A stretch of DNA of 64,000 nucleotides from Brasilonema sp. UFV-L1. Its GTDB lineage: Bacteria; Cyanobacteriota; Cyanobacteriia; Cyanobacteriales; Nostocaceae. The notes under the pieces were generated by a model. It was not told where the DNA came from, did no database searches, and saw nothing but the letters and a program-made list of their open reading frames with translations. Within the stretch, counting starts at the first letter, position 1. Each line of letters starts with the position of its first letter. The translations under genes and the position numbers were made by a program. The DNA lies in assembly GCF_012912105.1 (NCBI RefSeq), contig NZ_QMEA01000002.1:1-64000 (forward strand), read 5' to 3'. Below are positions 22,479-48,076 of the stretch, in pieces.

Positions 22479-22558
22479 AAAAAACGGAGTCAGCCTTTGG
22501 TCTGTTTCACTGTCGGCACCCACGAGTACTCGTTCTAATAAGGCTGACTCCGTTTTTT
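22479..22558. repeat. 80-nt hairpin element, copy A
   Basis: A perfect 19-bp stem (22479-22497 with 22540-22558) closes a 42-base loop. The loop contains the self-complementary ACGAGTACTCGT and the segment CTGTC. Loops of the same length and related sequence occur at 47824 and 47990, where the stems differ by paired changes. The right arm ends in TTTTTT, so it can also act as terminator of galE and of the opposing gene. Confidence 0.8.
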
Positions 22559-22583
22559 ATGGATTCATGCGTCCCCCACTCCC

Positions 22584-23189
22584 TTATCTCCTCTTCAACA
22601 TTCGCAGGACTCCAAAAAAAACACCCGCCGCTAAAAAACCTGAGACGGCGATCGCCCACAATGGAATTCCCTGAGTTTGTTCTTCGGTTATATTTTGATT
22701 GACATTTTGCACATTTTGTGGACTATTGGTGACTGCCGAACCAGCTGCCACCGTAACTGCAAACTTTAACTCAAATGGCTGAAAACTCTGTCCACCATTT
22801 TTTGGTTTACCACGCAGCTGTAGCTGATAAGCTCCAGGTCTGGGAAAAGTTATTTCAGTACCAGGTACGCCTTGATACCGTTCAGCGGAAACAGGCTGTA
22901 AGGGCGGTTCGAGGAGTGGTGGTTCTTTAGGGGAGTGGGGTTCAGCGTAAACCACTAATTTACAATTACACTCTGCTAAGGGGATCATCTTTCCACCTTT
23001 ACGAGTCAGAGCAAACCAGGTTTTTGCTGATTCTCCAGCGCGGGGATTATCATTCGGTTCAATGTGTAAAGTCGCGCCAACATCTGCTGAAGTCGTTACC
23101 TTATGGGCAATAGCTGGGTAAGCTATGGTTAGATATATACTTAACGAAATAAAGATTAATACATAAAAAATACGGTCAACAAACCTCAT
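22584..23189 (-). CDS. Periplasmic Ig-like domain protein with C-terminal anchor
   Basis: This 201-residue protein has an N-terminal signal (FYVLIFISLSIYLTIAYPAIAHA-like) and a beta-sandwich of the FixH/YtkA kind (GATLHIEPNDNPRAGESAKTWF, CNCKLVVY, PGTEITFPRPGAYQLQLRG). It ends with a membrane helix (IPLWAIAVSGFLAAGVFFGVL) and basic tail. It lies downstream of the TauE/SafE-like gene on the same strand, which suggests a shared role, possibly in copper handling; that is inference. ATG 23189 was chosen to place the signal peptide at the start; the longer frame from 23435 overlaps the upstream gene. Confidence 0.7.
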   Translation of the reverse strand: MRFVDRIFYVLIFISLSIYLTIAYPAIAHKVTTSADVGATLHIEPNDNPRAGESAKTWFALTRKGGKMIPLAECNCKLVVYAEPHSPKEPPLLEPPLQPVSAERYQGVPGTEITFPRPGAYQLQLRGKPKNGGQSFQPFELKFAVTVAAGSAVTNSPQNVQNVNQNITEEQTQGIPLWAIAVSGFLAAGVFFGVLRMLKRR

Positions 23190-23343
23190 TCCAAGCTGTT
23201 TACCAAGGCTAAGCCGCCCAGAACTTAAGTTCTGAGCAAATAGCAAAACTCTTTTAAAGAAGACTCGAAAATCATATTCAGTCCACTTTAGTAGACTTAA
23301 GCTATAAGCCCAGGGTTTTTTAAATCCTTGGCATATGAATTTA

Positions 23344-24567
23344 CTACGACTGTTTTGGGGGAACATAAAATTGCTGTAAAGATAACATTGACCAGAAAAA
23401 GCGCCAACGCACCAGCAAGACCAACAGTGTGACAATTCCCAGAAGCACTGCTGCCAATTTATGTCTCCAGCTAGATTGAAAAGAACCTAGATAGTGAGAG
23501 CCAATTATGACAGCATGGATTACGCTTAGTAGTAAAGCTGGCACGCTGAACAAATGAATAGCTCGCCAGCGTTTGCCTAAAAACTTCTGTAGACGGTCAA
23601 AACTGGTTAGGGCTGCGGGAGTCATTAGCACCAGTGCTACAGCACCTAAAGCCATGCCAAACTGATACTCTAGTGGCAAGAACAACAACGCTGCAAAATT
23701 CCATTGCAGTGAATGTTCCATCATATGGGTGGTGTGAGCCAAAGACAGCACAAAAGCACCGACTCCTAACGCACGACGGTAACGCAAAGGTGCTGCCCAC
23801 AAGTAACTGATGGGACGAGCAACAAGCGCTAGAATCAAACAAACTAACGCCGCATGTCCGGTGTAATCTATCATTGTGTTGCCAGTCCGTAGCAGGGTAA
23901 GCACACCAATCGTGAGAGTCACCCAGCCACCCAAGCGAAACAATTGACTACGCCTGTCTTTACTGACCAACGATGTAGACACACCCACACCTAACATTGT
24001 AGGCAGAGTTCCTAAACCAAACGCCAGCATTGTTGCTGCGCCCATCCACAAATTTCCAGTTTCCGCAGCTTTAATTTGAGCAGCATACAAGAAACCACAA
24101 GGCATTAAACCCCAAGTAACACCCAAAAGGGCTGGTGTCCACCATTTGGTTTGTAGAGAAAGCTTCATCATCACCTGACTGAGATCGTTGTGTAAACGAC
24201 CTTGCATAAGAGGGTGCAGCAATGGAATTTGAGGTAGAAACTCAGGTTTTATTTGTCTAATACCAAACCAAATCAGCAAAATGCCAGTCAGAATCGCCAT
24301 CCATTGGCGTAATTCGCTACCAATCCCTGCCATTTGTCCACTAGCAAGTAATACCGAACCAAGAGCACCAATTCCTGCACCAACGAGAACATAGCTCAAC
24401 ATCCGCCCTAAGTTCAGTAGTGTGTGAAATTGCAATTGTTGTCGCCAATGGGAAGTTTCCTGCTTATGAGACAGAGAAAACGCAACTGCTAAGGGACCAC
24501 ACATCCCAACACAATGTCCAAAACTTCCTAGGAATCCTAGAGCCATGAGAAGTAATAAATTTACCAT
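23344..24567 (-). CDS. TauE/SafE-family membrane protein fused to a ferric-reductase-like part
   Basis: This 407-residue protein has 10-12 hydrophobic segments. The first half is UreH_2/TauE-like with GSFGHCVGMCGPLAVAFS and a repeated GLMPCGFLYAA motif; these cysteines are typical of copper- or sulfite-linked family members. The second half (helices with HTTHMMEHS, HLFSVPALLLSVIHA) resembles the ferric-reductase transmembrane fold with possible haem histidines. The combination suggests metal or electron transfer across the membrane. The next gene on the same strand is a periplasmic protein 154 bases downstream. Confidence 0.7.
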   Translation of the reverse strand: MVNLLLLMALGFLGSFGHCVGMCGPLAVAFSLSHKQETSHWRQQLQFHTLLNLGRMLSYVLVGAGIGALGSVLLASGQMAGIGSELRQWMAILTGILLIWFGIRQIKPEFLPQIPLLHPLMQGRLHNDLSQVMMKLSLQTKWWTPALLGVTWGLMPCGFLYAAQIKAAETGNLWMGAATMLAFGLGTLPTMLGVGVSTSLVSKDRRSQLFRLGGWVTLTIGVLTLLRTGNTMIDYTGHAALVCLILALVARPISYLWAAPLRYRRALGVGAFVLSLAHTTHMMEHSLQWNFAALLFLPLEYQFGMALGAVALVLMTPAALTSFDRLQKFLGKRWRAIHLFSVPALLLSVIHAVIIGSHYLGSFQSSWRHKLAAVLLGIVTLLVLLVRWRFFWSMLSLQQFYVPPKQS

Positions 24568-24964
24568 CTGTTATTAAAAATGAAAAAATGAAAAAATTAA
24601 CAATGAAAAATATAAATTCTTAAATTTACACATTTCTGGAAATATGACAGTTTGAAGGAGAAGTCAGAATTCAGTAATGCTCATAATCTCGTTTGCAGGT
24701 AGAAGCTAGAAATGTCAACAGAGCGCTTTCACCGCTCTGTAAGGGAAGTTGAGCCTCTCAATGGGCATTCCCAGCCAGAGACTGGGAACGAGGCAATCTA
24801 AATTATTTATCTAAATTTTTTAGATTTAAACATTCTTGGAAATAGGAAAGTTTCATGAGGCACTTTAAATGAAGTAAGTTCTTTTGTCAAAAGACACAGC
24901 GTCAAACTTAGTGTTTGCGCTATCCTATGTCAGGTAACTACTCTCCCCCTAACCTTTTTGATTG
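24568..24964. repeat. Spacer with small palindromic repeats
   Basis: The spacer holds ACAGAGCG...CGCTCTGT near 24718-24741 and CCCAG-CCAGAGA-CTGGG near 24770, hairpins of the small dispersed type. No gene is seen. Confidence 0.6.
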
Positions 24965-26065
24965 ATGAGATATATGAAAAAACGGTTTTGGTTGTTGCTT
25001 GTGCTACCAATGATAGTAGTTGTCATAGTAGTTACCAACACGTTTATTAAGCAGCACAGGGAGTCAGTGATTTACAATATTAGAGTTGAAAAAAATCTCA
25101 CTGCAAATAAAGATACAAAGACACCAACACAGAAAGATACACAGACACAAAATTCTTCCGCGTCTTTGCACCCCCCTATTCCTGCTTCCTTACAAGTTTC
25201 TGCTGATCAGCTGTTCGCCCACGTTCAAAGGCTAAATTTTACACGACATACACCAGTCGAGCGATCGCGTACTCGCGCTTACATCACAACTGAACTCAAA
25301 AAAATCGGCTGGAAACCCAAGCTAGAGAAATTTCAAGACGGCGTTAACATCTTCGCAGAAAAACCAGGAACTGATAAAGATGCAGGAGCGATTTTGGTAG
25401 GTGCTCACTATGACACTGTTTATATCTCTCCTGGTGCAGATGACAACGCTAGTGGTGTTGCTGTGATTTTAGAAATTGCACGAATTTTTGGTTCGCGTTC
25501 CACCTCCAGAACGTTACAACTTGCCTTTTTCGATAAAGAAGAAGCAGGACTTTTAGGAAGTAAAGCTTTTGTGACAGACAAGAAACATCTGGAAAATTTG
25601 CAAGGCGTTATTGTTCTCGATATGGTGGGTTATGCTTGTCACACTCCTGGATGTCAAAAATACCCAACGAGTTTACCTGTGACTCCACCTAGTGATAAGG
25701 GTGATTTTTTGGCGGTGATAGGCGATACAGAACATTTACCGCTGCTTCATGCTTTTCAAAATTCACAGAAACTCTCAGCACTCTCTCTAAATAAGGCAAG
25801 TAAAAGGAGATTAACTCTACCATCTGTACTCACGCTACCAATACCTCTCAAAGGCTTGCTGACACCTGATACTTTACGTAGCGATCACGCTCCATTTTGG
25901 TATCAAGGAGTTGGAGCTGTCTTAGTTACTGATACCGCAAATCTACGGACTCCTCATTATCATCAGCCGAGCGATGTTCCAGCAACAATTGATCGCGAGT
26001 TTTTTGCCGGAGCAGCGCAGGTTGTTGTTAATGCTACTACCAAATTATTGCAAAATGGCAATTAA
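24965..26065 (+). CDS. M28 family zinc aminopeptidase
   Basis: This 366-residue protein has an N-terminal membrane anchor or uncleaved signal (FWLLLVLPMIVVVIVVTN), a Thr/Gln-rich linker, then an M28 domain. The zinc ligands are in GAHYDTV, GADDNASG, KEEAG, LDMVGY and TPHYHQPSD. It likely acts outside the inner membrane on peptides. ATG 24965 is used; ATG 24974 (MKKRF) is an equally good start. There is no clear ribosome site, and it is a single-gene unit. Confidence 0.87.
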   Translation: MRYMKKRFWLLLVLPMIVVVIVVTNTFIKQHRESVIYNIRVEKNLTANKDTKTPTQKDTQTQNSSASLHPPIPASLQVSADQLFAHVQRLNFTRHTPVERSRTRAYITTELKKIGWKPKLEKFQDGVNIFAEKPGTDKDAGAILVGAHYDTVYISPGADDNASGVAVILEIARIFGSRSTSRTLQLAFFDKEEAGLLGSKAFVTDKKHLENLQGVIVLDMVGYACHTPGCQKYPTSLPVTPPSDKGDFLAVIGDTEHLPLLHAFQNSQKLSALSLNKASKRRLTLPSVLTLPIPLKGLLTPDTLRSDHAPFWYQGVGAVLVTDTANLRTPHYHQPSDVPATIDREFFAGAAQVVVNATTKLLQNGN

Positions 26066-26529
26066 ACAAAGAATTCAGCAAGTCCTGATTCAGGAGTCAG
26101 AATCACTTCTGTTGGGGATGCGCGACCCCAACCGATTGTAGACAACGCCAGATGCCTCAAGTCGGGAAACCCGCCCACGGCACTGGCTCCCGTATAGACG
26201 GTGGGGATGCGCGACCCCATACTCATCCGCCAGTCGCACAGAATTCATTCTGAATTCTGGCGACTGACACCTTCGTTCTTCTGTTAAGCAGATGAGTGTT
26301 TGATACTCGTGAATCAATTTTAATGATTTCATTCAACACATCAGTTAGCTTTATTGTCAATAAACTCTAGGTTTGACCCTAAGTAAGAAAAACAAGTAAG
26401 GAAAAAATTTCAAAATATGCCTTTTTTCTTGCCCAATTGGGTTTAAAACCCCGCTGTCAACGGGGGCGTTTGGCATTGTTGAGGGTTTGAATCCAAGGGC
26501 CGAAGTATTCCTTCTGCCCTCTGGCTTCT
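26066..26529. repeat. Repeat-rich spacer
   Basis: GGGGATGCGCGACCCC occurs twice (about 26114 and 26203), enclosing a hairpin element at 26141-26190 (GCCAG.TGC ... GCACTGGC with inner TCGGGAAACCCG). A further CCCCG-CTGTCAA-CGGGG hairpin lies near 26450. The layout looks like one small element inserted into another. No gene is seen. Confidence 0.7.
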
Positions 26530-27852
26530 TCAAGAATTTTTATCTGATTGAATAGCAAAATATAATTTATTGAATTCTTGATTTGGTAATAAACCTATCG
26601 GGTCTAAAGCAAGATTATCTTTAATACCTTTAACAAGATACATATCAATTGCACCCTTATTTTTAGCACTAATTTTCCCTCGAGATTCAATTGAAAAAAA
26701 ATCTTTAATTAACTCAAAAGTTGCTTGAGAAATATTAATGCCTCCAGGAATACCAGATGATTCCATCCTAGAAGCAGTGTTAACAGTGTCGCCCCAGACA
26801 TCGTAAGCAAACTTCTTATGTCCAATCACACCTGCTAATAATGGTCCTGAGTGAATTCCAATACGAATATCCCAATATGGTTGATTCAAAAGTGCCTTCT
26901 CTTTTTTACGCCATTCCATAAACGTACGAATGTTGATAGCAGCTAACACAGCATCAATGGCATGGGTTTTGTTAGAAGTTGGAATTCCCCCAACACACAT
27001 ATAACTGTCACCAATCGTTTTCAATTTTTCCAAATTATGTGCTTCAATAAACTGGTCAAAACAAGAAAAACAGTAATCAAGTTCATCAACCAATTCTTGT
27101 GGAGTCAGCTGTTCTGATAACTCCGTAAAATTCTTAAAGTCTGTAAACAGAACAGAGGCAGATTCATAATGAACCGGCTTAACTGCACCAGTTTGCTTGA
27201 GTTCAGAAGCAATATCTATGGGTAGTATATTCAAAAGCAGTTTGTCTGTTTTGTGTTTTTCTTCTTCTAGTTGAAGATACAGCCGATTTAACTCTTCAAA
27301 GCGTTCAGCATTACGGATGGCTGCTGATAATTGCACGGCTAGTAAATAGCCAATGCGTAAATCTTCTTGAGTATAGGTTTTTGGTGCTGAAGTGGCAAAG
27401 TTAATCGTACCAAGCACCCGATTCTCCGATTCCAAAGGAATGATGATCTGCGAACTGTACTGACTCAGAAAACCGCTTGTAGAATTGTGATGAATGAGTC
27501 GGGCTTGCCCTGTTCTCAGACTAGTACCAACGACACCCATGTCTGTCATCTCAGAAAAGTTTATTTCGACAGTAGAACCAAACAATGTCACAATACGCCA
27601 AGAGCCTTTACGGTTGTGCAGGCAAACACTACAATGCTCGAAGTCTAATAACCATTTTGCTTGTTTCGCAACAACCCGCAAAATCTCATCTAGTTTTAGC
27701 GAACGATTAATTGCGATCGCAATTTCATTGACAGCTGCGATCCTACACGAAAGCGCTTGCGCTTCAGCAAGCAGGCGACGGGAAAGAAGCAACAGTTGTT
27801 GATAATCCTGTTGTTCCAGCCTACTAGCAATAGAGGCGGGGATAGAAGTCAT
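26530..27852 (-). CDS. GAF-domain adenylate cyclase (class III)
   Basis: This 440-residue protein has a GAF sensor at about residues 40-195, a short coiled linker (LYLQLEEEKHKTDKLLLNILP) and a class III cyclase domain. Metal-binding Asp is in VLFTDFKNFT. The adenine-selecting Lys and Asp appear in EKLKTIGDSYM and AYDVWGDTVNTASRM, so ATP is the likely substrate. Its ATG overlaps the stop of the upstream gene (ATGA), which means translational coupling. Cytoplasmic cAMP signalling in response to a GAF ligand is the likely role. Confidence 0.9.
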   Translation of the reverse strand: MTSIPASIASRLEQQDYQQLLLLSRRLLAEAQALSCRIAAVNEIAIAINRSLKLDEILRVVAKQAKWLLDFEHCSVCLHNRKGSWRIVTLFGSTVEINFSEMTDMGVVGTSLRTGQARLIHHNSTSGFLSQYSSQIIIPLESENRVLGTINFATSAPKTYTQEDLRIGYLLAVQLSAAIRNAERFEELNRLYLQLEEEKHKTDKLLLNILPIDIASELKQTGAVKPVHYESASVLFTDFKNFTELSEQLTPQELVDELDYCFSCFDQFIEAHNLEKLKTIGDSYMCVGGIPTSNKTHAIDAVLAAINIRTFMEWRKKEKALLNQPYWDIRIGIHSGPLLAGVIGHKKFAYDVWGDTVNTASRMESSGIPGGINISQATFELIKDFFSIESRGKISAKNKGAIDMYLVKGIKDNLALDPIGLLPNQEFNKLYFAIQSDKNS

Positions 27853-28391
27853 AATGTATCAATTTCGAGTGAAATTGAATCAGTATATCTATTTATACTC
27901 GTAAACAAGTCTGCTGTCGCAATAATTTCAAATATTTCAGAATCGTCTAAACCTAAGTTCTGAAGATATTGGTAATCTTTACTCGTGAGTGCATGAGGTT
28001 CCATCGCAGCTTTTAAGCCAAAGTTAATCACTGCTTTGTCACGTTCAGGAAGCGGACAAGCTGCAAAATCTGAAACCAGGGTTGTTAAAACTTCCTCACT
28101 CATCCCTAATGATGATAATCCGTGCAAATGGACATTCAATGCATAAGGACTACTATTTGCTTGAGAAACAGCAATTCCCAGCATTTCCTTGAGTGTGCGT
28201 GGAATATCTCCTTTCAAGACAGTGCTGCGAAATTTCTTCCAGTTACCTTCCAACACTTCAGGATTGATTGCCATTGATTTAAATAAATTTGGTACAATAC
28301 CAAATCCAAGTTCAACCATGATTTCTTCATAAATCGCTTTGACCTTGGAATCACTGAGCTGCTCGTATTCGATGATCGGAAATTTAGCCAT
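27849..28391 (-). CDS. Carboxymuconolactone decarboxylase-like protein lacking active-site cysteines
   Basis: This 180-residue protein has the AhpD-like/CMD fold (FGIVPNLFKSMAINPEVLEG, LKEMLGIAVSQAN, YALNVH, LPERDKAVINFGLK). Peroxidase members carry a CxxC or related pair before the conserved His; here the segment reads SQANSSPYALNVH, with no cysteine. It is therefore unlikely to be a thiol peroxidase. It overlaps the adenylate cyclase gene by 4 bases, so the two products are made together. A ligand-binding or regulatory role is possible but unproven. Confidence 0.75.
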   Translation of the reverse strand: MAKFPIIEYEQLSDSKVKAIYEEIMVELGFGIVPNLFKSMAINPEVLEGNWKKFRSTVLKGDIPRTLKEMLGIAVSQANSSPYALNVHLHGLSSLGMSEEVLTTLVSDFAACPLPERDKAVINFGLKAAMEPHALTSKDYQYLQNLGLDDSEIFEIIATADLFTSINRYTDSISLEIDTL

Positions 28392-28988
28392 TCTTGTTTG
28401 TATGCTTAGGGAACATCTTTAGAAAAAATGTTTAAAAAGTATCGCTTTTGTCATGCTGCACGAAAAAAGTGTCGTAAACGCCAGTGTGCGTACCTTTGGT
28501 ACTGAGCATCTTTATTTAAAGCCAAAGCTCAAGATTCTTATAGTTTTAAACCCTTCAGGTACGCTGTCCTTATAGTTAATGACACATTTCACGTTTACAA
28601 ATACGTTGCACGTGCTTCAAAGTGACTCACGCTTGTGCAGGAGATTACGTTTCGCTACGATTTACTCACCATGACATTTTTGACTTTCCAAACATCGTTT
28701 GAGATTTTTTACTCAAATAACTTTGTACTACTTCATACAATCTATGTCTTTATTCTAACAAAGTAGTACTGTGGCGAGCACCTGGTCAGTAGATAGTATA
28801 TATGAATCTACTTTTCATAACCAACTTAATATACAATACCATAGTCTTTGTATAATTACGATAAATAATCTATCAAAAAGTATAATGTATAGTTGATTGA
28901 AATTTTGGTCAGTACTGAATCTTACTGAAAAATTTATACTATTGAAAAAAAATAGGTCATCAAAAAATACATTCAGACATTCAGAATT
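28392..28988. other. Gene-free region between divergent genes
   Basis: These 597 AT-rich bases contain the promoters of the cyclase unit and of the aminopeptidase by position. No gene, hairpin or repeat stands out. Confidence 0.5.
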
Positions 28989-30299
28989 ATGCAAGCAGAA
29001 TATCGGCAGCGCCGTGAGCAGTTGATGTCAAAAATTGGGAATGGTACTGCAATCTTTCGCAGCGCGCCAACAGCCGTGATGCACAACGATGTTGAATACG
29101 CTTTTCGTCAAGACAGCGATTTTTATTATCTGACTGGGTTTAACGAACCGCAAGCAGTAGCAGTATTAGCACCATCACACTCAGAACATCGATTTGTGTT
29201 GTTCGTACAACCGAAAGATAGGGAGCAAGAAGTCTGGAGTGGTTATCGTTGTGGGGTAGAAGCGGCAAAACAGATGTACGGTGCAGATGAAGCATATCCG
29301 ATTACTGAACTTGATGAAAAGTTGTCGCAGTATTTGGAAAAAGCTGATCGCATTTACTACCACCTAGGACGCGATCGCACTTTCAACGATACAATCCTGA
29401 ATCATTGGCAGCATTTGATGCGGACTTATCCCAAGCGGGGAACAGGACCAATCGCCATTGAAGATACTGGTCCAATTCTGCACAGCATGAGATTAATGAA
29501 AAGTCAAGCAGAATTGGAGTTGATGCGGAAAGCTGCTGAGATTGCAGTTGAAGCACACAATCACGCGATGAAATTTACACAACCAGGGCGCTATGAGTAC
29601 GAAGTTCAAGCAGAAATAGAATATATTTTTCGTCTGCGAGGTGCGCTTGGACCAGCTTATCCCTCAATAGTTGCTTCCGGAGTCAATTCGTGCATCCTGC
29701 ACTACATTGAAAATGATCGACAAATGCAGGACAAAGAGTTGCTGTTGATTGATGCTGGTTGTGCTTATGGTTATTACAACTCTGATATCACGCGTACATT
29801 TCCAGTAGGTGGTAAATTTACGCCAGAACAAAAGACAGTGTATGAGATAGTTTTAGAAGCACAAAAGCAGGCGATCGCCCAAGTGCAACCAGGTAACCCC
29901 TACAAACAAATTCATGATACTGCCGTGCGCGTCTTGACAGAAGGCCTAGTCGAACTTGGTATCCTCAAGGGTGAAATCGACAAGCTCATAGAAGAAGAAA
30001 AATACAAGCCATACTATATGCATCGTACTGGTCATTGGCTTGGTTTAGATGTTCATGATGTGGGTGTTTATCAGCATGGTGATGAGAAACCACAGATTTT
30101 ACAACCAGGTCAAGTACTAACTGTAGAACCAGGACTTTATATTGTCCCAGATACCAAGCTAGCAGAAGACCAACCAGAGACAGATTCACGTTGGGTTGGT
30201 ATCGGTATTCGTATTGAGGATGATGTTTTGGTAACAACAACAGGTCATGAAGTGTTGACTGCTGGTGTGCCTAAGGAAGTCGCACAAGTAGAAAGATAA
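28989..30299 (+). CDS. pepP: Xaa-Pro aminopeptidase (M24B)
   Basis: This 436-residue protein has an N-terminal AMP_N domain (MQAEYRQRREQLMSKI, DFYYLTGFNEP) and a pita-bread M24 domain. Its metal ligands are in LLIDAGCAYGYYNSDITRTF, HRTGHWLGLDVHD, LTVEPGLYI and GIRIEDDVLV. It removes the N-terminal residue next to proline using two metal ions in the cytoplasm. A terminator-like hairpin follows directly. Confidence 0.92.
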   Translation: MQAEYRQRREQLMSKIGNGTAIFRSAPTAVMHNDVEYAFRQDSDFYYLTGFNEPQAVAVLAPSHSEHRFVLFVQPKDREQEVWSGYRCGVEAAKQMYGADEAYPITELDEKLSQYLEKADRIYYHLGRDRTFNDTILNHWQHLMRTYPKRGTGPIAIEDTGPILHSMRLMKSQAELELMRKAAEIAVEAHNHAMKFTQPGRYEYEVQAEIEYIFRLRGALGPAYPSIVASGVNSCILHYIENDRQMQDKELLLIDAGCAYGYYNSDITRTFPVGGKFTPEQKTVYEIVLEAQKQAIAQVQPGNPYKQIHDTAVRVLTEGLVELGILKGEIDKLIEEEKYKPYYMHRTGHWLGLDVHDVGVYQHGDEKPQILQPGQVLTVEPGLYIVPDTKLAEDQPETDSRWVGIGIRIEDDVLVTTTGHEVLTAGVPKEVAQVER

Positions 30300-30303
30300 A
30301 CAC

Positions 30304-30330
30304 AAAGGTGGGCACAATGCTCACCTTTTG
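30304..30330 (+). terminator. Terminator of pepP
   Basis: AAAGGTGGGCA-CAA-TGCTCACCTTT is an 11-bp stem with one G-T pair and runs into TTTTG. Confidence 0.7.
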
Positions 30331-30349
30331 AGACCTCAACCTTGACTTT

Positions 30350-30650: not shown

Positions 30651-30656
30651 GACTTA

Positions 30657-37335: not shown

Positions 37336-37438
37336 AATGACTGGGTGTTTTGTTTATATTACATTTTAGTGTCATCAAGAACTGCTTTTGTAAAACTGAA
37401 TACTCTAGGTCATGAAGAGAAATTAAGGAGAATCATCA

Positions 37439-39395: not shown

Positions 39396-39537
39396 AGTCA
39401 AAAGAAATAAGGCAGGACTTTGAGCTTTTCAAGTTCTGTTAACAGTTAAAGCTTTGGTCTTTAGTTTGTAGTCATAGCTTAAATAATTCAGACAAGCTAA
39501 TGACCAGAAGTCAAGTAAAGTACAATGGAGGATTATT

Positions 39538-40098: not shown

Positions 40099-40189
40099 GT
40101 AAAGTTCGACAAGTAAAGTTCATGGTGTAGGGTGCGCTAAGTCCCTACACCTTGATAACAAATGAGCAATGACTAAGGATTAAAGACTT

Positions 40190-41359: not shown

Positions 41360-41420
41360 CAGTATTGGTCATTTGTCCTTTGCTGCAAATGACCAATAAC
41401 TAATGACTAATAACCAAACT

Positions 41421-42608
41421 ATGTTTGAATCTCTAAAAAAAGAACTATCCCGCCGTTCTCTTTTACATAAAGTAGGCTTTGGGTTCATGGGACTCAGTGT
41501 TGCTGGGACACTTGGACATATTATCAAACCGGCTCGTACCTTAGCCCAATCAGAAGCAGCACCATCTAACGAACCATCTTCTGTGCCTCCCAACAAAAAG
41601 CTAGGATGGGCAGTTGTTGGTTTGGGTAAGTTTGCTACCCAGCAGATAATGCCCTCGTTTGCAGAGTGCAAGAGTTCAAAATTAGTGGCTTTAGTGAGTG
41701 GCGATAGCGCGAAAGCCGAAAAGTATGCAAAGCAATACGGCGTCAATCCCAAAAATATTTATAAATACCAGAACTATGACTCTATCCGCAACAACCCTGA
41801 AGTAGATATTATCTATATCATCTTGCCCAACGGCATGCATGCAGAATATAGTATTCGTGGAGCGCAAGCAGGCAAACACATCATGTGTGAAAAGCCGATG
41901 GCGAACACGGTAGAAGAATGCCAAGCAATGATTGATGCGGCAAAAAAAGCAAACCGCAAGTTAATGATTGCTTACCGCGCCCAATACGAACCATACAACC
42001 TCGCCACCATTCAACTTGCTCAAAGTGGCAAACTTGGTAAACTCAAGTTAATCACCTCAGATCACGGACGAAATCTCAACCCCAAAGATCCCGCCGACGT
42101 TTGGCGGATGCAAAAAAAACTTGCTGGCGGCGGTTCCCTCTACGACATCGGTGTCTACAGCTTACAAGCAGCACGGTACATCACTCGTGAGGAACCCGTA
42201 GCAATTAGTGCCATGACGTACAGCACTCCTGACGATCCCCGCTTTCGAGAAGTCGAGGAAAATGTCAACTTCGTGCTGCGTTTCCCTAGCGGCGTCCTTG
42301 CCAACTGCACCTCCAGCTACGGCTACTCAAATACCAAACGCATACAAGTTTTCGGATCTGACGCTGTCTTAGAATTAGACCCAGCAACCGACTACTACAA
42401 ACATCGCCTAACAATTAAGGACAAAAACGGTAACCAAGAGCAAAAAATTGAAGAAAAGAACCAGTTCGCCCTAGAAATGGATCACCTATCCGAGTCCATC
42501 ATACAGAACAAACAACCCAAAACCCCCGGCGAAGAAGGCTTGCAAGACGTTAAACTTATGCAGCTCATTTACGAAGCCGCCCGCACAGGCAAAACCATCA
42601 AAGTTTAG
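41421..42608 (+). CDS. Tat-exported Gfo/Idh/MocA oxidoreductase
   Basis: This roughly 395-residue protein starts with a twin-arginine signal (LSRRSLLHKVGFGFMG...TLAQS). The Rossmann domain is GWAVVGLGKFATQQIMPSF, with the family motif CEKPMANT; the C-terminal domain includes GGGSLYDIGVYSLQ. It resembles glucose-fructose oxidoreductase, which keeps NADP bound and makes sorbitol as an osmoprotectant. ATG 41421 is preferred because the in-frame ATG at 41403 lies inside a generic ATGACTAATAAC filler repeat. Confidence 0.85.
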   Translation: MFESLKKELSRRSLLHKVGFGFMGLSVAGTLGHIIKPARTLAQSEAAPSNEPSSVPPNKKLGWAVVGLGKFATQQIMPSFAECKSSKLVALVSGDSAKAEKYAKQYGVNPKNIYKYQNYDSIRNNPEVDIIYIILPNGMHAEYSIRGAQAGKHIMCEKPMANTVEECQAMIDAAKKANRKLMIAYRAQYEPYNLATIQLAQSGKLGKLKLITSDHGRNLNPKDPADVWRMQKKLAGGGSLYDIGVYSLQAARYITREEPVAISAMTYSTPDDPRFREVEENVNFVLRFPSGVLANCTSSYGYSNTKRIQVFGSDAVLELDPATDYYKHRLTIKDKNGNQEQKIEEKNQFALEMDHLSESIIQNKQPKTPGEEGLQDVKLMQLIYEAARTGKTIKV

Positions 42609-42698
42609 CACTCTCCAACTCTCCTCTTCCTTTTCTTTCTTTGCGTCCTTCGCGTCCTTCGCGGTTCGTTTTCCATAAACCTAACTGAGGAAACAAAT

Positions 42699-43040
42699 AT
42701 GGCTGACACAAGCGTTAAAAAAGTAGACTCCGCCTATTCTCCCAAAGGTGAACAGGGTCAAAAGTATCTTGCATCTGGCACATCTGTTTCAATGCGTCTT
42801 TGGGAAAATGAACAACCTGGTGAACCCAAAGAACTAGCAACACGCGAATATGAAACTGTAGGTTATGTCATCACTGGTCGTGCCGAATTGCACATTGAAG
42901 GTCAAGTTGTTTTACTAGAGCCAGGAAGTTCCTGGGTCGTGCCAAAAGGAGCATCCCACACTTATAAAATTCTAGAACCATTGACCGCTGTTGAGGCAAC
43001 TCATCCACCTGCCCAAGTTCATGGTCGAGACGAGAATTAA
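42699..43040 (+). CDS. Cupin-domain protein
   Basis: This 113-residue single-domain cupin has the two motif regions TREYETVGYVITGRAELHIEG and PGSSWVVPKGASHTYKI. Metal-binding histidines are reduced: motif 1 has no HxH pair, so a metal enzyme role is uncertain. GAGGAAACAAAT precedes ATG. It lies 90 bases behind the Gfo/Idh gene and ends with a strong terminator. Confidence 0.85.
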   Translation: MADTSVKKVDSAYSPKGEQGQKYLASGTSVSMRLWENEQPGEPKELATREYETVGYVITGRAELHIEGQVVLLEPGSSWVVPKGASHTYKILEPLTAVEATHPPAQVHGRDEN

Positions 43041-43084
43041 TTTATACCTATTAACTTTTGACGAAATTCGCTCTTACTCATATT

Positions 43085-43113
43085 AAACCAAAAGCTAAGC
43101 TTTTGGTTTTTTC
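43085..43113 (+). terminator. Terminator of the cupin gene
   Basis: AAACCAAAAGCT-A-AGCTTTTGGTTT is a perfect 12-bp palindrome with a T-run (TTTTTTC). Confidence 0.9.
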
Positions 43114-43273
43114 TTGATTTTCTAATAGTTAGAGCCTCTGAAGGTGCATTCTTTGACTTATCAAGAAACGAGATGCCCTCAATCAATTTACTTATTTTCT
43201 AACTATTTTTTTTGTAGTTTTTATTGAACCATAGAGTGATGTACAGCAAGTCTTAAATGAGTTTCCTAGAAAT

Positions 43274-43322
43274 CATAGGTAGCACAAGAATCAGATTAGT
43301 CTGATTTTGTGCCAGACCTATG
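43274..43322 (+). promoter_or_regulatory. Leader hairpin upstream of manganese catalase
   Basis: CATAGGT...ACCTATG encloses GCACAA.AATCAGA-TTAG-TCTGATT.TTGTGC, a long near-perfect hairpin ending 22 bases before the catalase ATG. It may be a 5' leader structure, or an operator if it lies at the promoter. Confidence 0.55.
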
Positions 43323-43344
43323 TCTAACTAATTAGGTAATAATA

Positions 43345-44265
43345 ATGTTCTACCACACCAAGAAGCTACAGTATTTCAAAGCACCAGAAAAACCAGACCC
43401 TATTTACGCGAAGAAAATTCAAGAACTCATCGGCGGTACTTTTGGTGAAATGACCGTGATGATGCAGTACCTGTTCCAGGGTTGGAATTGTCGCGGGCCT
43501 GCTAAATACCGCGATATGCTTTTAGATATTGGTACCGAAGAAATCGGTCACGTTGAGATGCTTGCTACGATGATTGCTCACCTTCTAGATAAAGCACCCA
43601 TCAAATTGCAAGAAGATGGTGCAAAAGACCCAGTAGTGGGTGCGGTTATGGGTGGTACCAATCCACAAGATGTCATTACAGATATCATGGGGGCAGCTAT
43701 GAATCCCCAACACGCGATTGTCTCTGGTTTGGGTGCTATGCCATCCGACAGCGTCGGTTTCCCCTGGAACGGTCGCTTTATCGTTGCAAGTGGTAACCTC
43801 TTGGCAGATTTTCGGTCAAATCTGCATGCCGAATCTCAAGGACGCTTACAAGCAGTGCGAATGTATGAAATGAGCAACGACCCAGGAGTTAAAGATACCC
43901 TGAGTTTCATGATAGCCCGTGACACCATGCATCAAAACCAATGGCTAGCTGCTGTTCAGGATTTAGAACAATCCGGACTAGAAACAACCCCTGTTCCCAG
44001 TTCTTTCCCATTAGACTTGGAGAAGCGCGAGTTTGCTTATCAGTTCTGGAATCATTCTGAAGGTACAGAAAGTTCTGAAGGTCGCTGGGCAAAAGGTCCT
44101 TCTCCAGACGGTAAAGGTGAATTCCAGTATGTAGAAAATCCTAAACCGCTAGGACCAGAACCATTACCTCCTCAAAGCGATCCAAGACTGCACGGGACGC
44201 CTTTAAACAAACAAGCACAAGGTAGCGCTGATCCTTTGATTAATCGCACGACTATCGGTAGCTGA
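43345..44265 (+). CDS. Manganese catalase
   Basis: This 306-residue protein has dimanganese ligands at the same positions as the Lactobacillus enzyme: Glu35 (GEMTVMMQYLFQG), Glu66 and His69 (EEIGHVEM), followed by HAESQGRLQAVR and TMHQNQW. It destroys hydrogen peroxide without haem. The C-terminal Pro/Gly-rich tail is typical of the long cyanobacterial form. A hairpin lies in the leader. The stop is followed within 5 bases by the remnant of tnpB on the other strand. Confidence 0.93.
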   Translation: MFYHTKKLQYFKAPEKPDPIYAKKIQELIGGTFGEMTVMMQYLFQGWNCRGPAKYRDMLLDIGTEEIGHVEMLATMIAHLLDKAPIKLQEDGAKDPVVGAVMGGTNPQDVITDIMGAAMNPQHAIVSGLGAMPSDSVGFPWNGRFIVASGNLLADFRSNLHAESQGRLQAVRMYEMSNDPGVKDTLSFMIARDTMHQNQWLAAVQDLEQSGLETTPVPSSFPLDLEKREFAYQFWNHSEGTESSEGRWAKGPSPDGKGEFQYVENPKPLGPEPLPPQSDPRLHGTPLNKQAQGSADPLINRTTIGS

Positions 44266-44270
44266 ACTAC

Positions 44271-44752
44271 CTACACCGACCTTGCGGTACGATGTAGGCT
44301 TCCCAATTCATCAGGAGTTGCCGCCCCGGTCGTAGACTTTCGTCCAAACCGCTTTGGTCTTACACCCCCTCCAAGGGCAGTAGCGCTGGTTCCCAACGCT
44401 CTTACGAGTTCGCCAGTTGCTCCACTTGGGGAAACACGCGCTTGTGCTACAACGGAGGGAACCTCCCGCAGTCGCCACAACGGGGGGAACCCTCCGATAG
44501 CGCAGCGGGCAAGGGAGGGCATAGCTTTGATCGGAGGTTTCCTCCGATCAAACAACTCTTGGCAAGGCGCTGCTCTTGGCAACGCACTGGCTCCCCAAGA
44601 CCGCACTGGCTCACCAATATCCGCAAACCTTCATTTCTGATATTAATCGCTGCATTTATGTCTCTGTCATGGTGCGTATTGCAGTGTGGACAAGAAAATG
44701 AGCGAACCGAGAGATCCATCTTTTCGAGCGGTAGCAGCGTAACATTACACAA
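44271..44752 (-). pseudogene. tnpB: tnpB (IS200/IS605 family) C-terminal remnant, broken by repeats
   Basis: The reverse strand encodes the TnpB zinc ribbon and last RuvC Asp (SFSCPHCNTHHDRDINAAINIRNEGLRIL, about 44645-44710). The usual TnpB tail appears downstream in another frame (ALGTSATALGGG...GRKSTTGAATPDELGS, about 44285-44400). Between them lie small palindromes, including perfect TTTGATCGGAGG-TTT-CCTCCGATCAAA (44526-44552). The first three quarters of the gene and tnpA are absent. TnpB is the RNA-guided nuclease related to Cas12; this copy is inactive. Confidence 0.8.
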
Positions 44753-44756
44753 ATGA

Positions 44757-45161
44757 GAGGAGGGGAAGAAACGACCTATTTCTAGGTATACCTTTTTTCC
44801 GCTTCAACACGGGCTTAAAACCCGTTACTTGTAATGAGGCACCGCAGTTTTTCCGGGTTTGGTGAAACGGTGAACGCTCCGTTAAAATGAGTCCCGACAG
44901 ATTAAGACGGGTGCTCAAAAAAAGGGGAGCCAGTGCGTTCGGCGGGGATGCCGACTTGAAGCAACTGGCGTGGTCATTTGGAAACGGGGAAGGAAGAGTC
45001 ACAAAGGAAAACAAGATCCAGTAGTACGCGATACGCGTTTGCGTATCCCGAGGGCGGGACGCTTTGCGACGAGCGCGCCCCCTATGCCTGCGGCACGGCT
45101 GTTGCCTATCGGGGCTAGCGTCAAGTCTCCGGCTGATCGCAAACAAGCAGACCTAGATATT
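44757..45161. repeat. Cluster of small palindromic elements
   Basis: There is no credible gene. Hairpins include ACGGGcttaaaaCCCGT (about 44807), a reverse-strand GCCA...TGGC-type element (44926-44971), and the GC-rich run CGCGATACGCG, GGGCGGGACGC, GCCTGCGGCACGGC near 45028-45105. Many appear inserted side by side. Confidence 0.65.
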
Positions 45162-45202
45162 CAGGACTTACGCAACTGGCAGTGCCAGTTGCGTAAGTCC
45201 TG
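45162..45202. repeat. Perfect 20-bp palindrome of the dispersed repeat
   Basis: CAGGACTTACGCAACTGGCA is followed by a single G and then its exact reverse complement. The same 20-mer is found singly at 131 and 48882. Two element ends placed head to head, or an empty element, would give this. Confidence 0.9.
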
Positions 45203-45241
45203 TTAAAGCTCAAACGCCTATATCCGGTGATCGACGATTAG

Positions 45242-45661
45242 GATTTACTAGTCGGTCAACAAGCTATTGCCACCACATTGAGCAATGCTATCAGTTCTGG
45301 AAGGATTACCCCAGCATAGCTGTTCACAGGTTCTCGTGGTACTGGCAAAACCTCCAGCGCTCGCATCCTCGCCAAATCTCTCAATTGCTTGGAGGTAGAA
45401 AGTCCTACCACTCAACCGTGTGGTAAGTGTAACTCTTGTCAGGCGATCGCCAACGGGTCATCCTTGGACGTAGTCGAATTAGATGCCGCTAGCAACTCTG
45501 GTGTTGAAAACATAAGAGAAATCATAGAGCGCTGTCAATTTGCCCCAGTAGAAAGTCGATACAAAGTGTTCATTATTGACGAGTGCCATAGTCTCAGCAA
45601 TCAAGGGTGGCAAGCTCTTTTAAAGACTTTGGGTTTTCAAGGTTCTGATGAATTATTATAA
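45242..45661 (+). pseudogene. dnaX: dnaX (DNA polymerase III tau/gamma) fragment
   Basis: The frame reads LVGQQAIATTLSNAISSGRITPA, an in-frame stop (TAG 45317-45319) where DnaX has Tyr, then LFTGSRGTGKTSSARILAKSLNC (Walker A). The zinc site CGKCNSC, ELDAASNSGVENIRE and Walker B VFIIDECH follow. It breaks off at QALLKTL, where the family continues with EEPP. Both ends are missing, so it is a dead N-terminal third of a clamp-loader ATPase. The functional gene must be elsewhere. Confidence 0.85.
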
Positions 45662-45860
45662 GCTTTACGGTGTCTACCTTTGGCGTTTTATCAGTTCCTG
45701 TTTTTACCGCTTTGCGGGGACTGTTATCTGGTGGCGCTTTTGGTTGTTGCTGCCGTTCTTGGCTCACAAATTGAATATAACGAAGAGTGCCGAAGATTAT
45801 CAAGATAAATGCCGAAGATTATTACTATTCTTCGTGGTGCATTCAACGAAACCCTTGGCA

Positions 45861-45890
45861 TTGTTTCGGTACAATACCGTAAGCTATAGA
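45861..45890 (+). promoter_or_regulatory. Possible promoter with palindromic operator
   Basis: CGGTA-CAA-TACCG (45867-45879) lies between TTGTTT and TATAGA, spaced 18 bases, just upstream of the ribbon-helix-helix gene. Autoregulation by that protein would be typical. Confidence 0.45.
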
Positions 45891-45912
45891 AGAACAAACA
45901 AATTACACATAA

Positions 45913-46083
45913 ATGGCTAAGACAAATAAACCTCGATTGAATTTCACGTTGGATGAGGAGAGCAAAGATTTTATAGAAGAGTGGGCAAGGCAGGAACGCA
46001 GAAGCGTTGCCAATCTGCTGGAGGGGATTGTATTGGAGGCGGTTAGTCGAAAAAAGCAGGTGAATGGGAGTGGTCACTCTTAA
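45913..46083 (+). CDS. Small ribbon-helix-helix DNA-binding protein
   Basis: This 56-residue protein (KPRLNFTLDEESKDFIEEWARQERRS, then VANLLEGIVLEAV) has the strand-helix-helix pattern of CopG/Arc-type regulators. Such proteins bind DNA as dimers and are often antitoxins or plasmid copy regulators. It is the first gene of a compact cassette with a second small gene and a Uma2 nuclease. Start ATG 45913 has no strong ribosome site. Confidence 0.7.
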   Translation: MAKTNKPRLNFTLDEESKDFIEEWARQERRSVANLLEGIVLEAVSRKKQVNGSGHS

Positions 46084-46117
46084 ATGAAGTTGAGCGCTCG
46101 CAAAACTTCATTTTCGC

Positions 46118-46164
46118 TTGTCATGACAAAAACAGCTATAATGAATCTCATTTTTGTCCTGACA
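46118..46164 (+). promoter_or_regulatory. Two operator-like palindromes and a -10 box
   Basis: TTGTCATGACAA (46118-46129) and TTGTCCTGACA (46154-46164) flank TATAAT (46137-46142), ahead of the second small gene. A repeated half-site TTGTC suggests cooperative binding of a ribbon-helix-helix repressor. Confidence 0.5.
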
Positions 46165-46175
46165 GTGTTGAGTAT

Positions 46176-46355
46176 ATGATTCAGACCCAATCGGAACTGA
46201 CGCGCCGTACAACAGGTGCTGTAACAGTGCAAGCATTCTTTACTGAGGAGGAACGTCAGCAGTTCAAAGCGATTTGCAACGATGCTGGCAGCAACATGGC
46301 TCATGTCTTGCGTATGTTGGCTTTGAAGTGGATGGAAGGAAAGGAGGACAAATGA
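46176..46355 (+). CDS. Small ribbon-helix-helix-like protein, partner of Uma2 gene
   Basis: This 59-residue protein (TTGAVTVQAFFTEEERQQFKAICNDAGSNMAHVLRMLALKWMEG) has one predicted strand followed by two helices, as in RHH/plasmid copy regulators. Its TGA overlaps the ATG of the Uma2 gene (ATGA), so translation is coupled. The two palindromes just upstream are plausible operators. Confidence 0.7.
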   Translation: MIQTQSELTRRTTGAVTVQAFFTEEERQQFKAICNDAGSNMAHVLRMLALKWMEGKEDK

Positions 46356-46996
46356 CCAACGCAGCAGCTATGAATACCGTAATTACACCAGAAAGAATCG
46401 AATTGCCTCCTGGTGCTATCTTGAAACTCTTGGGAAACTGGCAAGACTATCAAAAGCTGCAAACACAGTTAGGCGATCGCACTATACCTCGTATCAAATA
46501 TCGACTGGGAGAGATTTGGCTGATGGCACCGCTACCAGAGCATGGAAGAGATGCGAGCTTGCTGGCAGATATTGCTAAGGTTTTGCTGGATAGTTTAGAG
46601 CAAAGATACGACTCATTTACGCCTATCACCATGAGCTTGCCTCTTGTTAGCGGCATTGAGCCTGACTATTGCTTTTATATTGAAAATTGGAGATCCGTAG
46701 TAGGCAAGAACCGTATCGACTGGCAGAATGACCCTTCACCAGATTTAGTGATTGAGGTAGATGTTACTAGTTATACCGATATTAATGACTATCTCCCTTA
46801 TAAAGTGCCAGAAGTCTGGCTGCTGAAGAATAAGCAGCTATTAGTTTACAGATTGCAGGGTGAAAGTTACGCACTTGCAGAAAGCAGTTACTTTCCTAAC
46901 GTTTCAGAAATTGTACGGCAATGTCTCCTAATTGCAAGTGAGCAGACAACAAGTGAGGCAATAAGGTGGTTAAGGAACGAATGGCACGCTCGATAA
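46352..46996 (+). CDS. Uma2-family (DUF820) putative endonuclease
   Basis: This 214-residue protein has a PD-(D/E)xK-like nuclease core: MSLPLVSGIEPDYCFYIENW, then SPDLVIEVDVTSYTDINDYLPYKVPEVWLL. DUF820 is greatly expanded in cyanobacteria and its role is unknown; mobility or defence has been suggested. ATG 46352 overlaps the preceding gene and has AAGGAGG upstream. The longer frame to 46274 would run inside the small gene. Confidence 0.82.
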   Translation: MTNAAAMNTVITPERIELPPGAILKLLGNWQDYQKLQTQLGDRTIPRIKYRLGEIWLMAPLPEHGRDASLLADIAKVLLDSLEQRYDSFTPITMSLPLVSGIEPDYCFYIENWRSVVGKNRIDWQNDPSPDLVIEVDVTSYTDINDYLPYKVPEVWLLKNKQLLVYRLQGESYALAESSYFPNVSEIVRQCLLIASEQTTSEAIRWLRNEWHAR

Positions 46997-47052
46997 GCGA
47001 TCGCTTTCCGAGGAGTTAGTAAAAAACTTAACAATTCTATCCACGTAGAAAA

Positions 47053-47096
47053 AGCCTCCTGTGTCCAGGCAAACTAGATTGGAAGACAGCGAGGCT
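47053..47096. other. Hairpin after the Uma2 gene
   Basis: AGCCTC-CTGT ... ACAGC-GAGGCT forms a nested stem, followed by GTTAAAAATG. It may end the cassette transcript, although the T-run is weak. Confidence 0.45.
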
Positions 47097-47337
47097 GTTA
47101 AAAATGTCTACTTATAATGTGCCAAATCGTGTTAAAGTTCTCAAGCATAAATTTACGCAAAGTATTAGACATCTCCGAAATATAAGCATGGCTGCGGTAA
47201 AATAAGACTCAACAAACTTTTACGAAAATAAGAACATGAGTTCTGTATCAGAGTACATCGAACAAAATCCCCAAGAAACACAGCGATTGGTTGGTCTGAA
47301 GTACGAGCAGCTAGAGCAACTAAGAAAGCAAGCGTTA

Positions 47338-47363
47338 AGCTAGCTGCGCCTGCGGCAATCGCA
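47338..47363. repeat. 26-bp insertion in the transposase gene
   Basis: Removing these 26 bases and one of two flanking TTA triplets restores QLRKQAL-HNQKQAEVE in frame. It contains GCTGCGCCTGCGGC. The size and 3-base duplication fit a very small mobile repeat. Confidence 0.75.
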
Positions 47364-47823
47364 TTACATAACCAAAAGCAGGCAGAAGTCGAAGCACGAA
47401 AGATTAGAATTTTGACACTCTCTGCGGCTTTAGCCGCAGAGATTCTTAAGAGCTTTGGGTCTTAATATCCTGATTGCTCAGGTTGCTAGGCTCAACACGT
47501 TTGCCTCTTAGGGCGTATTGATACGCCAGGTGCCACAACGGGACGCCACATGCGGGACTGTCGGGAAACCCGCCCAACGCAGTGGCTTGGGAACCCTCCA
47601 AGTTCTGATCGGAGGAAACCTCCGCTCAGACAACTCTTGGCAAGGCACTGGCTCATCTCCTGTGTGGTTATTTCAGCCGTAACTTTCTTCCAGCCCGGAA
47701 GTAGGTTTTTATGTCTTGTCTGACTCTTTTAATGTACCACTAGCCTCATTATCCACGTTGATGATTCACCAAATTTTTAATGACGCATTGTCCCCTAAAA
47801 ATTTAGCGTCGCATTTGGGCAAA

Positions 47824-47924
47824 GAAAAAGAGCCTTAGCGCAGCGGCTCCCCTTGGGAGCTTCCTTTGTTTGTTGATCTGTGTTCCAAAACGAGTACTCG
47901 TAGTTATAAGGCTGGCTCTTTTTC
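47824..47924. repeat. Hairpin element, copy B
   Basis: GAAAAAGAGCC (47824-47834) pairs with GGCTCTTTTTC (47914-47924). The last 42 bases of the loop align with copies A and C, including GATCTGT, TTCCAA and ACGAGTACTCGT. An extra palindromic piece (AGCGCAGCGGCTCC...) is inserted near the left arm. Confidence 0.75.
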
Positions 47925-47977
47925 ACAAGGAGGAACCCCGCTACGCCCTCAAGCCCTTCGATTAATCGTGGGGTCGA

Positions 47978-48076
47978 GGTCTAACACGAAGAAATTGAGC
48001 CAGCCCTCTTTTTGTGGATCTGTCTTCCAAGTCGGGTACTCGTTGTATTAGGGCTGGCTCAATTTCTAGGGGACAA
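47978..48076 (+). repeat. GGTCTAACACG / AGGGGACAA element carrying hairpin copy C
   Basis: Between the boundary motifs lies a perfect 18-bp stem (47990-48007 with 48050-48067) and a 42-base loop with GATCTGTCTTCCAA and GGGTACTCGT. It is nested inside the 47785-48138 element. Confidence 0.8.

What the first reader, a model, noticed from the sequence alone, without database searches (positions are those of the whole stretch)
22479..48067. Hairpin family with a constant 42-base loop and symmetrically changing stems
Copies at 22479-22558, 47824-47924 and 47990-48067 share a loop of the same 42-base length with GATCTGT/TTCCAA blocks and an inner ACGAGTACTCGT hairpin. Between the A and C copies the 18-19-bp stems differ at five positions, and each change is matched in the other arm; copy B shows a third state at two of them. 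Stem covariation with loop conservation is the reverse of an ordinary MITE and implies a folded RNA or single-stranded DNA is recognised.
Basis: partly seen in the sequence, partly recalled or inferred. Interest (0 to 1): 0.75.

Follow-up and report, generated by a model that had tools for sequence, protein, structure and literature searches.

The report
Mobile DNA hairpin with flippable loop
These hairpins belong to a family of tiny jumping DNA elements in cyanobacteria of the Nostoc group whose two stem halves change together and whose loop flips over, a pattern best explained by DNA copying across the hairpin and needing no functional RNA.

Summary
The hairpins are real and belong to a family: about 84 copies above control in this genome, 7 of 7 held genomes of the genus, and 41 of 217 genomes of the family by covariance model. 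The usual unit is about 106 bp: two short conserved, asymmetric ends, a 16-18 bp stem, and a loop of about 42 nt. Copy A is an insertion that six congeners lack.

Stem covariation is strong (192 two-sided cells against 56.6 shuffled) and leaves almost no intermediates: 1269 of 1280 pairs in 80 stems are Watson-Crick, with no G-T among pairs 1-15. Most two-sided changes are of transversion type (120 of 191). Some sister copies have the same stem and a 98-100% identical but inverted loop, window copy C among them, and one homologous site shows the loop inverted.

Arm matching plus spacer inversion is the published signature of template switching between inverted repeats. I therefore read the covariation mainly as concerted copying of the arms in a REPIN/MITE-like element. 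It does not show that a folded RNA is recognised. The mobilising enzyme is unknown.

The parts
22460..22478 (+). Copy A, outer end (end family 1, CCCCGTGG... side)
   Evidence: the same end in other family-1 copies
22479..22497 (+). Copy A, left stem arm
22498..22539 (+). Copy A, 42-nt loop with core 1 (lacks the 45-bp insert seen in L003, L007, L009, L010 and L017)
22540..22558 (+). Copy A, right stem arm
22559..22576 (+). Copy A, other outer end (ATGGATTCATGCGTCCCC)
   Evidence: its last 16 bases occur exactly at 8 places in the genome; the insertion is absent in six congeners
47782..47807 (+). Outer nested element: L end (GACGCATTGTCCCC) and left arm AAAAATTTAGC
47808..47946 (+). Copy B with its own ends (end family 4), inserted in the outer element's loop; arms 47824-47834 and 47914-47924, 30-nt insert 47835-47864, core 47865-47909
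   Evidence: the same copy nested at G000:C41:42051
47971..47989 (-). Copy C, R end
47990..48067 (+). Copy C, stem 18 bp and 42-nt loop (48008-48049); loop inverted relative to the ends as compared with sister copies L026 and L100
48068..48085 (-). Copy C, L end
48113..48143 (+). Outer nested element: right arm GCTAAATTTTT and R end
48413..48545 (-). Further family member, 105 nt between the ends, stem AAAAATTGGGCAGGC, loop of another type
59110..59180 (+). Core-less member: same ends, stem AAAAATTTAGCCAGCA, very short loop (42 nt between the ends)
   Evidence: (L085)

Best explanation
This is a family of non-autonomous hairpin insertion elements of about 106 bp. Two short asymmetric ends (GACGCATTGTCCCC and GGGTCTTACACG) are conserved, presumably because an unidentified transposase acting in trans reads them (inferred). 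Between them lies a long inverted repeat with a loop of about 42 nt. When a polymerase or a single-stranded intermediate passes this hairpin, one arm can serve as template for the other and the loop can be copied in reverse (template switching or fold-back synthesis; inferred). Each arm mutation is thus erased or passed to the other arm, so stems drift in sequence but stay paired, and the loop flips relative to the ends. Shown: the family, the insertion, the pairing, the lack of intermediates and the two loop orientations. Inferred: the copying step and the mobilising enzyme.
For: (1) Mobility: copy A absent from the syntenic region in 6 of 6 congeners; exact filled/empty pair L032 versus L015. 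(2) Arms matched but free in sequence: 38 different outer 10-mers in 78 stems with at least 9 of 10 outer pairs; in the 80 stems with at least 7 of 10, 1269 of 1280 pairs are Watson-Crick; of 11 mismatches 6 are at the outermost pair counted, and none of the other 5 is G-T. Pairing 93.1% against 73.4% shuffled, two-sided cells 192 against 56.6, covariation score 0.507 against 0.145, 0 of 500 shuffles each. (3) Two-sided changes are mostly of transversion type (120 of 191 in A1; 132 of 212 over all 68 distinct arm pairs), which one G-U step cannot bridge. (4) Outer stems are about as diverged between copies as the loops (identity 0.62 against 0.60-0.72), as copying predicts and slow compensatory selection does not (inference). 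(5) Loop inversion: orientation 41:35 among 83 single-layer elements, 7 unclassified. Among 41 pairs of elements (same 14-nt stem start, loop at least 80% identical in either direction) 27 are in the same and 14 in inverted orientation, 4 of the latter at 98-100% identity and one group with a different loop type (L293 and L295 versus L296); pairs share members and are not independent. L017 and L003 share an identical 113-nt inner part between swapped ends. L110 versus L217 is inverted at a homologous site. (6) PMC8604942 reports homogenised arms and spacer inversion as joint results of template switching (abstract; introduction and one results section read).
Against: No template-switch event is caught with its mismatched ancestor. 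The inner parts of the ends are about as unmutated as the arms are matched (the end search itself allowed at most 2 changes), so many copies may be young, and selection for pairing during movement could give the same low mismatch rate. Published yeast spacer inversions involve short spacers (2-5 bp), here about 42 nt. Inversion among 98-100% identical loops is so frequent that it may belong to the transposition reaction instead of ordinary replication. The one in-place inversion could be two insertions at the same target, since same-site insertions occur. The full list holds some G-U and unpaired cells, from rows with broken or shifted arms. Nine of 89 hairpins have poorly paired outer arms.
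Confidence: 0.6

Rival explanations
1. Selection for a perfect hairpin at the DNA level: the mobilising enzyme works on folded single-stranded DNA (REPIN-like, Y1 transposase), only well-paired copies move, and compensated changes survive because unpaired copies are dead. This can act together with template switching.
For: Sharp mode of the length between the ends (64 of 100 elements at 77-84 nt, 1 at 85-100), and loops of about 42-46 nt in most of 40 stretches from other genera where the loop is strongly diverged (loops of 34-61 nt allowed). REPINs show conserved ends, fixed length and compensatory changes (PMC3116915, part of one section read). The genome has 12 Y1_Tnp matches, and 4 of these 12 loci hold a family member within about 1.5 kb.
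Against: It needs unpaired intermediates that are almost absent, does not by itself predict loop inversion, and none of the 12 Y1 genes lies between the two ends. A 5-bp flanking repeat at one exact site, if a target duplication, would fit a DDE enzyme better.
Confidence: 0.25
2. A structured RNA (regulatory RNA, riboswitch-like element or bidirectional terminator) selected for its fold.
For: Strong covariation; stems mostly A-rich at the 5' base and T-rich at the 3' base, which reads the same on both strands, as in bidirectional terminators.
Against: Loop in either orientation to the ends; no G-U among pairs 1-15 of 80 stems; transversion-type double changes dominate; no Rfam family at gathering score on the three window copies or on five further element loci; not enriched between convergent genes (3 of 28 cases with a neighbour on each side, simple ORF calling); some copies sit inside transposase genes. 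The terminator scan says nothing here, since it allows loops of 3-8 only.
Confidence: 0.1
3. A site-specific recombinase flips or swaps the loop cassette at the conserved CAGCC/GGCTG boundary, and ends, stems and loops are shuffled as modules.
For: Similar cores occur with different stems and different end families; several nested insertions start right after CAGC or CAGCC.
Against: Flips occur with different loop types and different stems, so little more than the inner stem is shared, and it does not explain matched outer arms.
Confidence: 0.05

Closest known systems
REPINs mobilised by RAYT transposases (PMC3116915; Nostoc punctiforme is among its genomes)
   Same: Short non-autonomous unit; highly conserved ends; a middle for which length and hairpin formation matter more than sequence; compensatory changes common.
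   Different: REPIN ends are inverted copies of one REP and symmetric; here the two ends differ, and the hairpin lies inside them. Loop inversion is not in the passages I read. No RAYT link shown.
Small dispersed repeats of Nostoc (Elhai 2008; paper not held, recalled; seen only in a reference list)
   Same: Nostocales; nested in each other and in minitransposons; hairpins with compensatory mutations (recalled).
   Different: SDRs are 21-27 nt (recalled); this unit is about 106 bp with conserved ends. Some inserts in its loops look SDR-like (by eye, recalled).
Prokaryotic MITEs, e.g. Nezha in cyanobacteria (PMC10969869, passages)
   Same: Short, dispersed, no transposase gene of its own, inserted where relatives are empty.
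   Different: No terminal inverted repeat between the two ends; the inverted repeat is internal and hypervariable; target duplication uncertain.
Rickettsia palindromic elements (PMC10969869, passages)
   Same: Palindromic unit of about 100-150 bp that can insert in frame in genes; L015 is an in-frame case.
   Different: In-frame insertion was seen in single cases only; no conserved peptide tested.
Template switching at inverted repeats (PMC8604942, abstract and two sections; PMC8794818, abstract and opening)
   Same: Arms homogenised and spacer inverted; stems kept perfect by copying.
   Different: Described there for single loci in yeast genes and for RNA genes; here it would act across a whole mobile-element family with spacers of about 42 nt.

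Membership tests
REPIN/RAYT | two inverted copies of one REP as ends | tested here: not met
   ends GACGCATTGTCCCC and GGGTCTTACACG are not inverted copies of each other
REPIN/RAYT | fixed length and hairpin with compensatory changes | tested here: met
   64 of 100 elements at 77-84 nt between the ends, 1 at 85-100, 34 longer, 1 shorter; covariation
REPIN/RAYT | a cognate RAYT gene flanked by the same ends | tested here: inconclusive
   12 Y1_Tnp matches, 4 loci with an element within about 1.5 kb, none lying between the two ends
MITE | terminal inverted repeats | tested here: not met
   asymmetric ends
MITE | target-site duplication | tested here: inconclusive
   GGCGG repeat at one exact empty/filled pair; identical flanking 4-mers at 20 of 173 elements against 5.3 expected, at the best of the many offsets tried; other flank classes without a repeat
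MITE | dispersed insertion, no transposase gene | tested here: met
SDR (Elhai) | 21-27 nt unit of a described sequence (recalled) | not tested
   paper not held
Rickettsia palindromic element | in-frame insertion in genes with a conserved peptide | tested here: inconclusive
   L015 in frame without a stop; L187 and L092 at the same site with stops in frame
Structured RNA of Rfam | match at gathering score | tested here: not met
   none on the window copies or five further element loci; best below threshold for the B/C region mir-3923 at 20.5 bits against 94 needed
Template-switch signature | homogenised arms | tested here: met
   (pattern, not process)
Template-switch signature | spacer inversion between otherwise matching copies | tested here: met

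The most novel reading that the evidence does not exclude
The element rewrites its own stem when it moves: transposition goes through a folded single strand in which one arm is re-synthesised from the other, so each jump makes a perfect stem and sets the loop orientation at random. Covariation would then be a footprint of the transposition chemistry and not of selection on a structure.
Probability: 0.25. Interest if true: 0.8.

Novelty: new variant of a known kind. Interest (0 to 1): 0.58.

Why it matters
Stem covariation is the standard evidence for functional RNA. Here is a large natural family (38 distinct outer stems in 78 intact hairpins) with textbook covariation whose loops flip orientation, so the covariation can arise without RNA selection. 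It is a ready test bed for telling compensatory selection from template switching, and a warning for covariation-based searches for non-coding RNA in repeat-rich genomes. It also adds a mobile element with asymmetric ends and an invertible loop, found in 16 of 56 genera searched in its family.

Tried and rejected
Riboswitch or known non-coding RNA: no Rfam match at gathering score (below threshold). Terminator role: no convergent-gene enrichment; the terminator scan allows loops of 3-8 only and so could not see these hairpins. Relation to the HEARO (IscB omega) RNA at 58361-58563: I saw no similarity by eye, and cmscan called no HEARO on the five element loci scanned. Autonomous partner with family-2 ends: among the 77 L and 98 R places entered (the lists were capped at 100 of 106 and 100 of 122, and I left out L places with 3 mismatches), correctly oriented L-R pairs 330-6000 bp apart are three: the nested element at 47782, a chance combination of neighbours at 47975-48530, and C321:36099-37866. 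The last looks like a family member split by another insertion with its own inverted ends (its middle was not read). So no autonomous partner was found, but the search was limited. Family-1 ends: the 3 inexact places lacked the exact partner string within their loci. Y1 transposase as partner: only proximity. Clean target duplication: equivocal. My first argument that arm mismatches are rarer than end mutations failed, since the inner ends are hardly mutated either, and is not used. Core-pattern search at order level: 1 of 388 genomes, our own, superseded by the covariance-model search, which used stricter filters and scored at most 18 candidates per genome, so its counts are lower bounds. In the exact-pattern scan of named genomes 7 stretches came back. 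could not find more than 84 nt between the ends because of its search window; the length claim rests. Rows dropped: one search used 89 of 98 core-anchored hairpins (loop length, register or first base out of range); 9 of the 89 fell below 7 of 10 outer pairs and were left out of the mismatch count. One search used 60 of the 68 distinct arm pairs; the 8 left out include two mis-anchored rows (L083, L088), and with all 68 the type ratio is nearly the same. Novelty searches; none of the listed titles or abstracts concerned this element or a loop inversion in a bacterial mobile element (one library, open-access papers only).
Full report
Observation. The three hairpins are present as described, with corrections. 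A and C differ at five stem positions, all matched; B has a third state at two. A 30-nt insert follows B's left arm, so its arms enclose 79 nt. B and C both lie in the loop of a larger element of the same family that starts at 47782 and ends at 48143. A, B and C carry different outer ends (called here family 1, family 4 and family 2).

Family. A core pattern with up to 3 mismatches hits 50 + 38 places in the 8.31-Mb genome against 2 + 2 for the reversed control. Reading outwards from the stems shows conserved ends: GACGCATTGTCCCC on one side and, read inwards from the other, GGGTCTTACACG. In the clusters, L and R places are mostly about 108 bp apart, end to end. Seven of seven held genomes of the genus have the core. 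The titles of the named records show Brasilonema and Scytonema strains; coordinates tie three of the unnamed congeners to them (G388, G391 and G392). A covariance model from 33 elements finds 41 of 217 genomes of the family, in 16 of 56 genera, at E up to 0.001; this is a lower bound, since at most 18 candidates per genome were scored with strict filters.

Mobility. The genes around copy A are syntenic in all six congeners, and all six lack the element there; the surrounding low-complexity DNA does not allow the exact junction to be drawn. In a transposase-like gene (DDE_5) the filled copy L032 and the empty copy L015 agree apart from two single bases, the element and a repeated GGCGG in the stretch compared. 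L015 carries another element further on, in frame and without a stop. Of 100 elements found by their ends, 34 are longer than 100 nt between the ends, and those I looked at carry inserts or nested members. I saw no gene in the usual unit, and a limited search found no autonomous partner.

Covariation. I anchored hairpins on the core, not on pairing of the outer stem, and used 89 of 98. In 71 of 89 all ten outer pairs match, and in 7 more nine do. The mean is 9.26 of 10 against 5.94 when right arms are shuffled among copies (largest of 2000 shuffles 6.45). In the 80 with at least 7 of 10, 1269 of 1280 pairs are Watson-Crick; there are 3 G-T and 3 A-C pairs, all at positions 15 and 16 near the stem base. 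The 78 best stems show 38 different outer 10-mers. On 60 distinct arm pairs, cells paired are 93.1% against 73.4% shuffled, two-sided changes 192 against 56.6, and covariation 0.507 against 0.145, and sliding the partner by 1-3 columns lowers the score to 0.143 or less. This list includes poorly paired rows and shows a few G-U cells. Of the two-sided Watson-Crick changes 120 of 191 are of transversion type. Cells are not independent events.

Loop inversion. In 83 single-layer elements the core stands 41 times in one and 35 times in the other orientation relative to the ends, with 7 unclassified. Comparing pairs of 117 elements with the same 14-nt stem start and loops at least 80% identical in either direction gives 27 same-orientation and 14 inverted pairs; pairs share members. 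The inverted pairs include window copy C (in L028) against L026 and L100 at 98%, L273 against L274 at 95% within one genome, and L293 and L295 against L296 at 100% with a quite different loop. Family-1 copies L003 and L017 have an identical 113-nt inner part between swapped ends. At one homologous site (L110 and L217, flanks 92.7% and 88.1% identical) stem and ends agree and the loop is inverted: alignment score 34 inverted against -9 direct, with a shuffled maximum of -4. Caveat: L004, L032 and L138 show nearly identical elements (L004 with a 45-bp insert) at the same site in gene copies only 73-83% alike nearby, so same-site insertion seems to happen, and two independent insertions at the L110/L217 site cannot be excluded.

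Mechanism. Matched arms and an inverted spacer are the two published products of template switching between inverted repeats (PMC8604942: abstract, introduction and one results section read; PMC8794818: abstract and opening read). Copying explains why intermediates are missing, why double transversions are common, and why outer stems have diverged about as far as the loops. It also fits all loop types, so no special recombination site is needed. Selection on DNA structure may act as well: the length between the ends has a sharp mode (64 of 100 at 77-84 nt), and REPINs, also of fixed length with compensatory changes (PMC3116915, part of section 10 read), are proposed to move as hairpins. Frequent inversion among nearly identical copies leaves open that the flip belongs to transposition itself. 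I give the copying model 0.6, structure selection alone 0.25, RNA 0.1 and a recombinase 0.05.

Classification. By working principle this is closest to REPINs and MITEs, but it fails the defining end symmetry of both. I therefore call it a new variant of a known kind and do not file it as a member of either.

Noticed in passing
L004, L032, L138 (same site in DDE_5 transposase-like genes): A nearly identical element sits at the same codon in three gene copies whose nearby DNA is only 73-83% identical in the comparisons made with L004, while a gene copy 97.6% identical to L032 over 825 bp (in L015) is empty: this suggests recurrent insertion at one target, or precise loss.
   Followed up: partly
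L015 1476-1581; also L310 1353-1461: Elements read in frame inside transposase genes (L015 in a DDE_5 gene; L310 near the start of a Y1 TnpA reading frame), reminiscent of Rickettsia palindromic elements.
   Followed up: partly
L307-L318: 4 of 12 Y1 transposase loci (39,312 bases in all) hold a family member within about 1.5 kb, more than the average density would suggest; a possible link to the mobilising enzyme.
   Followed up: partly
L267-L306 (other genera): In most of these 40 stretches the loop is 40-46 nt although its sequence is strongly diverged, and 36 of the 40 best hairpins have stems of at least 14 bp, one of them with a single G-T pair and the others perfect (best hairpin per stretch, so biased to good pairing).
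   Followed up: partly
L003, L004, L008, L010, L011, L013, L049; window 47835-47864: Smaller inserts of about 30-60 bp (such as ACGCCACATGC...GCAGTGGCTC and TAGCCCC...GGGGCGCTACGCAAACG) sit repeatedly in the loops, often just after CAGC, like the small dispersed repeats recalled from Nostoc.
   Followed up: no
G000:C321:36099-37866 (L130, L131): A family member whose right arm seems split by about 1.6 kb with its own inverted ends (CAGGGCAAACGCA / TGCGTTTGCCCTG), probably another insertion sequence; the middle was not read.
   Followed up: no
window 58361-58563 (+): HEARO RNA (RF02033, 85.8 bits); whether an IscB gene lies nearby was not examined.
   Followed up: no
window 903-979 (+): Group II intron match (RF00029, 52.3 bits).
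   Followed up: no
window 22411-22462: Copy A lies beside a purine/pyrimidine-rich repeat that also occurs elsewhere in congeners and varies in length between them at this site.
   Followed up: no
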